Shown here piece after piece: positions 6,535-17,636 of a stretch of DNA of 64,000 nt; within the stretch, counting starts at the first letter, position 1, and each line of letters opens with the position of its first letter. The stretch lies in NCBI GenBank assembly GCA_013388745.1, contig JACAER010000042.1, positions 1-64,000 on the forward strand. The letters are read 5' to 3'. Below the pieces are notes generated by a model, which was not told where the DNA came from, ran no database searches, and saw nothing but the letters and a program-made list of their open reading frames with translations. The position numbers were made by a program, and so were the translations under genes. The DNA is from Chloroflexota bacterium. Lineage in GTDB: Bacteria > Chloroflexota > Anaerolineae > Aggregatilineales > Phototrophicaceae.

Positions 6535-6565
6535 GCGCGCCTATACAAATCTGATAGGCGTGTTT

Positions 6566-6571
6566 TATAAT
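6566..6571 (+). promoter_or_regulatory. -10 element (TATAAT) of a promoter for the tmRNA-like RNA
   Basis: Perfect TATAAT 12 nt upstream of GGGGAUG; -35 region weak. Confidence 0.6.
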
Positions 6572-6582
6572 AGAATATAGAT

Positions 6583-6703
6583 GGGGATGAATCAGCTTCG
6601 ACGGGATAGACTGCTGGCGAGTAACGCGAAGGCGCACTGCAAAAACGTGAAACCCAGCTTACAAGGTCTATCGCGGACGCGCGGGCAGTACGCGCCATCT
6701 CCA
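6583..6703 (+). ncRNA. Compact tmRNA-like RNA (tRNA-like domain plus P2, no evident mRNA-like domain)
   Basis: 5' GGGGATGAATCAGCTTCGACGGGATAGAC. Acceptor 6583-6589 pairs with 6696-6702 (7 bp with G3-U). P2 GATAGAC 6605-6611 pairs with GTCTATC 6666-6672. CGGAC then GCGCG-GGCAGTA-CGCGC T-arm-like hairpin. Flanked by TATAAT and a Rho-independent terminator. Confidence 0.7.
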
Positions 6704-6715
6704 CACCAACGACAG

Positions 6716-6741
6716 CAGGAAGCACAGCGCTTCCTGTTTTT
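6716..6741 (+). terminator. Rho-independent terminator
   Basis: CAGGAAGC-ACAGC-GCTTCCTG followed by TTTTT. Confidence 0.85.
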
Positions 6742-16406: not shown

Positions 16407-17636
16407 ATGCAGCAGAAGCCAACGCGCAGCACGATTTTGTTCATTTTAATCACCAGTCTGTTGAATTTGGCCGGGATTGGCATCATCGGGCCGGTAATTC
16501 CGTTTCTGGTGGAACGCTACACCGCGCAGCAGGATCAAGCGCTGGTGGTTTCGCTGTTATTCACCTCGTACTCGCTCTTTCAATTTCTGGCGACACCCAC
16601 ACTGGGGGCGCTCAGCGACCATTTTGGGCGGCGGCCTGTGCTGCTCCTCAGTCTGCTGGGGTCAGCTGCCGGCTATCTCATGCTCGGCATCGGCGGGTCG
16701 CTCGCGATGCTGTTTGCCGGGCGGATTATCGATGGGTTGACGGGCGGAAATCTGGCGACGATCTATGCTTATGCCGCCGACATCAGTGAACCGCAGGACA
16801 GAACCCGCTTTTTCGGGCGGCTGGGGGCGATTTCGGGCTTTGGTTTTATATTGGGGCCGGCCATCGGCGGGCTGGCTTACTGGATTACCGGCGCGGTAGA
16901 AGCCCCCATGTACCTGGCCGCGCTGCTGACGCTGGCAAACACTGTATGGGGTTACTTCGCCATGCCCGAAACGCTGACCAAGGAACGACGCAGCAAAGAG
17001 CTGCCTCTGGCGCGGCTGAATCCGCTGGGCCAACTGCTTGATATTCTGCGTATCCCGCAGCTCCGGCTGCTGTTGATCGCCGTGTTCTTGTGGGCGGTGT
17101 CGTTCGCTGTTTTGCAGTCAAATCTCAGCTATTTCGCCAAAGATCAGTTGGGATGGGACGCAAGCGGAACAAGCGCGATTTTTACGCTGGTGGGTATCGT
17201 AGCCATCATTACGCAGGATCGAGTCGTCCCCCGTTTGCTGCCCCGACTGGGCGAGGGACGTATGGCTGTGACCGGCATGTTGTCTCAAGCAGCCGGCTTT
17301 ATCCTCGTGGCACTGATCCCGCTCACGCAGTTTCCGGCGCAAGTCTTTCTCGCAGTGCTGTTCGTGGCGACAGGCAACGGGCTGGTGCTGCCCTCGCTGA
17401 CCGGTCTCCTCTCGCAGGCCGTAAGCCGCAACGAACAGGGACGGATACAGGGCGGCAACCAATCGATCCAGGCGTTGGGGCGAGTCTTGGGGCCGACTCT
17501 CGGCGGGGTGGCTTACGGAACCATCAGCCACAGCGCGCCTTATATTTCGGGCGCGCTGGGATTAGTGTTAGGGGCCATCACCGTCTCCGGGGCACTGGGA
17601 ACGCTGGCGCAGGCCAGGTCAGCCAGCAGCGATTAA
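16407..17636 (+). CDS. MFS transporter (drug-efflux/TetA-like)
   Basis: GALSDHFGRRPVLLLSLLGSAAGYL, FAGRIIDGLTGGNLATIYAYAADIS; 12 TM pattern. Confidence 0.88.
   Translation: MQQKPTRSTILFILITSLLNLAGIGIIGPVIPFLVERYTAQQDQALVVSLLFTSYSLFQFLATPTLGALSDHFGRRPVLLLSLLGSAAGYLMLGIGGSLAMLFAGRIIDGLTGGNLATIYAYAADISEPQDRTRFFGRLGAISGFGFILGPAIGGLAYWITGAVEAPMYLAALLTLANTVWGYFAMPETLTKERRSKELPLARLNPLGQLLDILRIPQLRLLLIAVFLWAVSFAVLQSNLSYFAKDQLGWDASGTSAIFTLVGIVAIITQDRVVPRLLPRLGEGRMAVTGMLSQAAGFILVALIPLTQFPAQVFLAVLFVATGNGLVLPSLTGLLSQAVSRNEQGRIQGGNQSIQALGRVLGPTLGGVAYGTISHSAPYISGALGLVLGAITVSGALGTLAQARSASSD

What the first reader, a model, noticed from the sequence alone, without database searches (positions are those of the whole stretch)
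6566..6741. Miniature tmRNA-like RNA of about 120 nt with its own promoter and terminator
Seen directly: TATAAT at 6566-6571, then GGGGATGAATCAGCTTCGACGGGATAGAC. The 5' GGGGATG (6583-6589) pairs with CATCTCC (6696-6702), giving a 7-bp acceptor stem with a G-U at the third pair. GATAGAC (6605-6611) pairs with GTCTATC (6666-6672) like tmRNA P2, extended by GCTGG/CCAGC (6613-6617/6654-6658). CGGAC is followed by a 5-bp/7-nt T-arm-like hairpin GCGCG-GGCAGTA-CGCGC. A Rho-independent terminator follows at 6716-6741. Established: tmRNA has a tRNAAla-like domain with G3-U70, a conserved UUCGACGGG-type D region and GGAC before the T arm, but bacterial one-piece forms are usually about 300-400 nt with a tag ORF and pseudoknots. 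Only about 54 nt lie between the P2 strands and no tag ending in LAA is visible; the only very short GCA-start frame is GCA AAA ACG TGA. The T-loop GGCAGTA lacks canonical TTCRANY. Inference: either a radically reduced tmRNA, a non-messenger tRNA-like RNA derived from tmRNA, or a deletion derivative.
Basis: partly seen in the sequence, partly recalled or inferred. Interest (0 to 1): 0.88.

Follow-up and report, generated by a model that had tools for sequence, protein, structure and literature searches.

The report
Conserved tagless miniature tmRNA-like RNA
This is a real, evolutionarily conserved small RNA of about 121 bases that keeps the tRNA-like half of tmRNA (the RNA that rescues stalled ribosomes) but replaces the tag-coding half with a small conserved hairpin; it sits in certain Chloroflexota bacteria, usually beside a normal tmRNA gene, and in one phage, so it is probably a natural modulator of ribosome rescue.

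Summary
Window 6583-6703 belongs to a conserved RNA family of 110-129 nt. It is found in 22 of 154 genomes of the window's order and on one tailed-phage contig, and in no genome sampled outside that order. It has a tmRNA-type tRNA-like domain: a 7-bp acceptor with G3·U70 in every copy, a stemless D-loop, RGAC and a T-arm. A P2 arm is capped by a conserved AGUA / 3-bp stem / GAAGGCGCA-loop / GAA hairpin. There is no shared tag reading frame and no pseudoknot. Twenty-four of 28 modelled pairs show changes on both sides, and two TLD tertiary or near-tertiary contacts also covary. Nearly all copies have a -10 box just upstream, and most have a terminator. The hosts keep smpB (21/22) and a normal ~385-nt ssrA (20/22), so the RNA is a paralogue, not a reduced or decayed ssrA. 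CDS-less tmRNAs are known from mitochondria, plastids and phage DS6A, so this is a new variant. Best mechanism, inferred: an alanylated, SmpB-binding, tagless competitor that tunes trans-translation.

The parts
6542..6571 (+). Promoter-like element: weak -35 (TATACA 6542-6547), 18-nt spacer, -10 TATAAT 6566-6571, 11 nt before the mature 5' end
   Evidence: A -10 hexamer with at least 5/6 matches lies 4-13 nt before the 5' G in 19 of 21 modelled homologues.
6583..6703 (+). Tagless mini-tmRNA gene (121 nt to the discriminator A; CCA not encoded)
   Evidence: Model R2 match of 119.5 bits, E 8.9e-29; covariation.
6583..6589 (+). Acceptor 5' strand GGGGATG, G3 of G3.U70 at 6585
   Evidence: pair 3 is GU in 23/23 while pairs 4 and 5 change on both sides.
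6590..6604 (+). Stemless D region AATCAGCTTCGACGG; A18 equivalent 6594, SmpB-site G19/A20 equivalents 6600-6601, C21 equivalent 6602
   Evidence: SmpB-site residues as named in PMC2584231.
6605..6617 (+). P2 5' strand (GATAGAC 6605-6611; extension GCTGG 6613-6617)
6620..6651 (+). P2 cap: AGTA 6620-6623, 3-bp stem ACG/CGT 6624-6626/6646-6648, loop with GAAGGCGCA 6628-6636 and A-rich 3' side, GAA 6649-6651 (AGUA/GAA suggests a bulged-G motif)
   Evidence: Alignment. The stem covaries (GC, GU, AU, CG at its first pair; CG/GC/UA at its second). Cap motif in 23/23 minis and in none of 20 full-length ssrA loci.
6654..6672 (+). P2 3' strand (CCAGC 6654-6658; GTCTATC 6666-6672)
6674..6678 (+). CGGAC box; G6675 is the G333 equivalent that covaries with position 21
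   Evidence: C-G in 9, T-A in 14, no exception
6679..6695 (+). T-arm, 5 bp, loop GGCAGTA with G55 (6685)
   Evidence: weak alpha_tmRNA 3'-part match 23.3 bits
6696..6703 (+). Acceptor 3' strand CATCTCC and discriminator A
6716..6741 (+). Terminator-like hairpin CAGGAAGC-ACAGC-GCTTCCTG plus TTTTT
   Evidence: Sequence; not listed by the simple scan; similar hairpin-T stretches follow most homologues.

Best explanation
The locus encodes a stable, independently transcribed paralogue of tmRNA reduced to its tRNA-like domain plus a P2 arm closed by a conserved 30-nt cap. Shown here: conserved TLD fold, G3.U70, elbow contacts, no tag frame, coexistence with ssrA and smpB. Inferred: AlaRS charges it, SmpB and EF-Tu bind it, and it enters, or competes for, ribosomes stalled without an A-site codon. 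It has no resume codon, so it cannot switch template or tag. Its likely net effect is to compete with full-length tmRNA and so lower or tune trans-translation, with the cap perhaps binding a partner that sets when this happens.
For: Family and fold. G3.U70 is GU in 21/21 while pairs 4 and 5 vary on both sides in 11 and 9 sequences, which fits selection for alanylation. D18/T55 goes AG with NGC or GG with TTC: 19 and 3 minis with one ambiguous; full-length ssrA 11 and 6. The 21-333 pair is C-G or U-A in 23/23. D-loop/T-loop contacts are reported as needed for SmpB binding (PMC3968760). smpB in 21/22 and full-length ssrA in 20/22 hosts. A TLD-only RNA, whether or not chargeable, strongly inhibits tmRNA, perhaps by titrating SmpB (Mao et al. 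2009, as reported in PMC4131195). Loss of the resume codon is lethal in H. pylori (PMC2584231), so a codon-less form should not complete rescue. A tailed phage carries a member.
Against: No expression, charging, SmpB-binding or phenotype data. A pure SmpB sponge would not need an invariant G3.U70, so simple titration does not explain everything. Presence is patchy (22/154), so the role is not essential to the order. Nothing here explains the conserved GAAGGCGCA loop; it shows no unusual complementarity to the 23S rRNA locus tested.
Confidence: 0.5

Rival explanations
1. Tagless rescue factor: the alanylated RNA with SmpB accepts the nascent chain on stalled ribosomes, adds one alanine, and another factor (a peptidyl hydrolase or subunit-splitting route) finishes release, as suggested for CDS-less mitochondrial tmRNA.
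For: Charging and elbow features conserved. Mitochondrial tmRNAs lack a tag frame yet are kept together with SmpB (PMC11915505).
Against: These hosts already have full ssrA. The resume codon is needed for rescue in H. pylori (PMC2584231). No partner factor identified.
Confidence: 0.2
2. Dedicated alanine donor or scaffold outside trans-translation: the charged RNA feeds a tRNA-dependent transferase, and the cap recruits the enzyme.
For: Invariant G3.U70 with a conserved cap that is not part of ssrA.
Against: No conserved neighbouring transferase; neighbours are unrelated housekeeping genes that differ between genera. SmpB-site residues and the C21-G333 contact are kept.
Confidence: 0.15
3. The reduced RNA is the host's only tmRNA.
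For: No full-length ssrA found in the window's own genome.
Against: That assembly is 88.9% complete; the same-genus genome G001 has both, as do 20 of 22 hosts.
Confidence: 0.04
4. Decayed ssrA copy or chance tRNA-like sequence.
For: No tag frame; no Rfam gathering hit in the window.
Against: Compensatory changes in 24/28 pairs; conserved cap, promoters and terminators; family across several families of an order and a phage.
Confidence: 0.02

Closest known systems
Mycobacteriophage DS6A TLD-only tmRNA (Mao et al. 2009, cited in PMC4131195 and PMC11915505)
   Same: Little more than the tmRNA tRNA-like domain, no CDS; such an RNA is reported to inhibit endogenous tmRNA.
   Different: The DS6A-type form is described as similar to ~65-bp plastid forms and from one phage. 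Here 110-129 nt, with a P2 extension and conserved cap, mainly on bacterial chromosomes. The DS6A record was not in the collection, so no direct alignment was made.
Mitochondrial tmRNA (RF02544; jakobids, oomycetes)
   Same: Lacks a tag reading frame and keeps SmpB in the cell; altered T-loop in Reclinomonas (PMC1168896).
   Different: Usually permuted genes and the only tmRNA of the organelle; here one-piece and usually coexisting with a full ssrA.
Standard bacterial ssrA / tmRNA (RF00023)
   Same: Acceptor with G3.U70, stemless D-loop with UCGA, RGAC, T-arm, P2; four homologues pass the family cut-off.
   Different: No tag frame, no resume or stop codon, no pseudoknots; about 121 instead of about 385 nt.
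Alphaproteobacterial two-piece tmRNA (RF01849)
   Same: T-loop of the GGCRGUA type; weak match of the 3' part (23.3 bits); U55 to G in Caulobacter (PMC1168896).
   Different: Not permuted, one piece, no coding piece; the likeness is best read as a recurrent D18/T55 swap, also seen in this clade's own ssrA.

Membership tests
Standard tmRNA (ssrA, RF00023) | 7-bp acceptor with G3.U70 and A discriminator | tested here: met
   23/23 copies
Standard tmRNA (ssrA, RF00023) | Stemless D-loop with UCGA, RGAC box, 5-bp/about 7-nt T-arm, elbow contacts | tested here: met
   18/55 and 21/333 covariation. One copy (G003, L070) departs at UCGA, at the RGAC box and in D-loop parsing.
Standard tmRNA (ssrA, RF00023) | Tag reading frame with resume codon and in-frame stop | tested here: not met
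   No shared open frame with a stop in 23 copies
Standard tmRNA (ssrA, RF00023) | Pseudoknots PK1-PK4 / length 300-400 nt | tested here: not met
   110-129 nt; only a small hairpin cap on P2
Standard tmRNA (ssrA, RF00023) | Score over Rfam gathering cut-off | tested here: inconclusive
   Window copy no; G009, G098, G045 and phage copies yes
Standard tmRNA (ssrA, RF00023) | SmpB binding, alanylation, trans-translation | not testable with these tools
   Only smpB presence shown: 21/22 hosts
CDS-less / TLD-only tmRNA-like RNA | tmRNA TLD retained, mRNA domain absent | tested here: met
CDS-less / TLD-only tmRNA-like RNA | Inhibits endogenous tmRNA | not testable with these tools
   Reported for a DS6A-like RNA only (PMC4131195)

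The most novel reading that the evidence does not exclude
Chromosomes of one Chloroflexota order, and at least one phage, encode a dedicated, alanine-chargeable, tagless tmRNA paralogue with its own sensor-like cap that regulates (or is used by phage to block) trans-translation: a natural RNA antagonist or modulator of ribosome rescue acting beside the normal tmRNA.
Probability: 0.45. Interest if true: 0.88.

Novelty: new variant of a known kind. Interest (0 to 1): 0.76.

Why it matters
Tagless tmRNAs were known from organelles, a phage and a couple of doubtful bacterial cases; a 2025 survey of 97,179 tmRNA sequences lists only 9 'standard, no CDS' forms (PMC11915505). A conserved, independently transcribed tagless paralogue living beside a normal ssrA separates the tRNA role of tmRNA from its messenger role by natural selection. 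It makes testable whether cells regulate trans-translation with an RNA competitor, and whether phages use the same device. It also gives clean natural covariation for two TLD contacts: 18-55, and the 21-333 pair, which was only 'weakly supported' in earlier alignments (PMC1168896).

Tried and rejected
Tag frame: frames through the loop differ in phase and stops between members, so the GCA AAA ACG TGA frame is not kept. Pairing of the GAAGGCGCA loop with 23S rRNA: the best run of 9 equals the shuffle mode; pairing with the host's ssrA: best run 7, no control run. Mobile or prophage location of the bacterial copies: neighbours are ordinary chromosomal genes, conserved only within genera. Weak model hits L076, L077, L130 and L131-L135 were rejected: L076 and L077 are 77-nt hits in what reads as coding sequence, not followed further; L130 is a CRISPR array; the others are 3' ends of full-length ssrA. 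G006:C39 88-nt hit looks like an ordinary tRNA in an array. INPHARED search with the window copy found nothing; the phage copy matched mostly tRNA/tmRNA T-arms only. DS6A could not be fetched.

Full report
1. The observation. ARAGORN finds no tRNA or tmRNA in the window and no Rfam family reaches its gathering score. With only the RNA given, Rfam's best matches are the 3' part of alphaproteobacterial tmRNA (23.3 bits) and permuted tmRNA (22.2 bits). Alone, the sequence folds into the proposed cloverleaf-like form at -43.8 kcal/mol (z -2.5).

2. It is a family. BLASTN found four copies in relatives at 74-79% identity. A model of these five sequences with the window's structure found 21 copies in 154 genomes of the order (one weak extra hit is a full-length ssrA end). 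The improved model found 22 and weak hits that proved false. Samples of 396 genomes of the class and 400 of the phylum gave no credible copy outside the order. Named records with the cap motif are all Chloroflexi/Anaerolineae MAGs; the contig length of one (NAT290, NZXX01000012.1) equals that of G009's contig. A 75-kb IMG/VR contig also carries one copy. It encodes major head protein, tape measure, endolysin and a weak terminase match, so it is a tailed phage.

3. Structure is under selection. In 21 sequences 24 of 28 pairs have changes on both sides; 98.9% of cells pair against 69.7% in shuffles; sliding the partners abolishes the signal. An unconstrained MAFFT/RNAalifold run on 23 sequences gives the same fold, 23 of 25 pairs with double changes. 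The alignments fitted to the model lean towards it, so the second run is the cleaner control. The G3·U70 pair is GU in every copy while its neighbours 4 and 5 are GC, CG, UA or AU. Two further contacts covary. D-loop 18 with T-loop 55 is A with G in 19 minis, G with U in 3 (G045, G025, phage), and unclear in G003. The full-length ssrA that could be parsed show the same two states (11 and 6), and in six genomes mini and ssrA are in different states, so the swap has happened repeatedly. Position 21 with 333 is C-G in 9 and U-A in 14, no exception. These contacts and the UCGA of the D-loop lie at the tmRNA elbow, where SmpB binds (PMC3968760, PMC2584231).

4. What replaces the messenger. Between the P2 strands lie AGUA, a covarying 3-bp stem, a loop with GAAGGCGCA or a close variant followed by an A-rich stretch, then GAA. 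AGUA facing GAA suggests a bulged-G (loop-E type) motif; this is inference from sequence. The cap motif is in all 23 minis and absent from 20 full-length ssrA loci of the same genomes. Frames and stops through the loop are not shared, so there is no tag.

5. Gene and surroundings. In 19 of 21 modelled loci a -10 hexamer with at least 5/6 matches lies 4-13 nt before the first G, and most are followed by a hairpin and T-run. In the window the gene sits between a DinB-superfamily gene and an M24-family (methionine-aminopeptidase-like) gene; the same downstream neighbour occurs in G001. Other genera have other, constant neighbours (pfkA-like, DnaJ-like, SIS-domain). This looks like vertical inheritance within genera with patchy gain or loss.

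6. Partners. smpB is found in 21 of 22 hosts and a full-length ssrA in 20 of 22. The window's genome has smpB but no ssrA was found; it is 88.9% complete, and its congener has both. G079 lacks calls for both. Hence the mini-RNA is a paralogue in addition to ssrA in nearly all hosts.

7. How it most likely works. Shown: a conserved TLD with alanine identity and elbow contacts, no coding part, and a conserved cap. Inferred: it is charged with alanine, bound by SmpB and EF-Tu, and competes with tmRNA at stalled ribosomes. Published work supports competition: a TLD-only RNA strongly inhibits tmRNA in E. coli, charged or not, perhaps by titrating SmpB (Mao et al. 2009 as reported in PMC4131195 and PMC11915505; I could not read the original). 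Abolishing the resume codon abolishes rescue in H. pylori (PMC2584231). The invariant G3·U70 says that charging matters here, so the RNA probably acts on the ribosome or as an alanine carrier, not only as a sponge. A tagless rescue role, as proposed for mitochondrial tmRNA, remains possible.

8. Known or new. CDS-less tmRNAs are known in mitochondria, two plastids and phage DS6A, and two bacterial groups may lack tags (PMC11915505). My searches of the paper library found no chromosomal tagless tmRNA paralogue beside a normal ssrA; that library is incomplete. I therefore rate this a new variant of a known kind. It is not filed as a functional tmRNA, because the tag frame was tested and not met.

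Noticed in passing
L136 (G020:C61) 16737-16800 +: A 64-nt TLD-only tmRNA-like RNA with P2 closed by a GCGA tetraloop (67.6 bits to RF00023) on a phage-like contig with primase, ParB and exonuclease genes; much like the DS6A form. About 150 nt upstream a second tRNA-like sequence with G3-T70 and T-loop TGCAAAT.
   Followed up: partly
L130 (G053:C212) near 1500-1605: A CRISPR array in which one spacer reads TCCGGACGGCGGTTCAATTCCGCCCACCTCCA, i.e. looks like the 3' end of a tmRNA (RGAC box, T-arm, acceptor), perhaps taken from a phage tmRNA or an att site.
   Followed up: no
L033 (G001 full-length ssrA), L097/L098 (G084/G087), L050 (G021): Full-length ssrA of this clade often have T-loops without TTCRANY (GGCAGAA, GGCAGTA, TGCAAAT); ARAGORN misses the G001 copy.
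   Followed up: partly
G079; G064: G079 has a mini-tmRNA but neither ssrA nor smpB was found in a 95% complete assembly; G064 has two smpB genes. Could be assembly artefacts.
   Followed up: no
L071 1050-1442 + (G045): The gene just upstream of the mini-tmRNA in G045 is an S30AE-domain (ribosome hibernation factor type) protein; not conserved at other loci.
   Followed up: no
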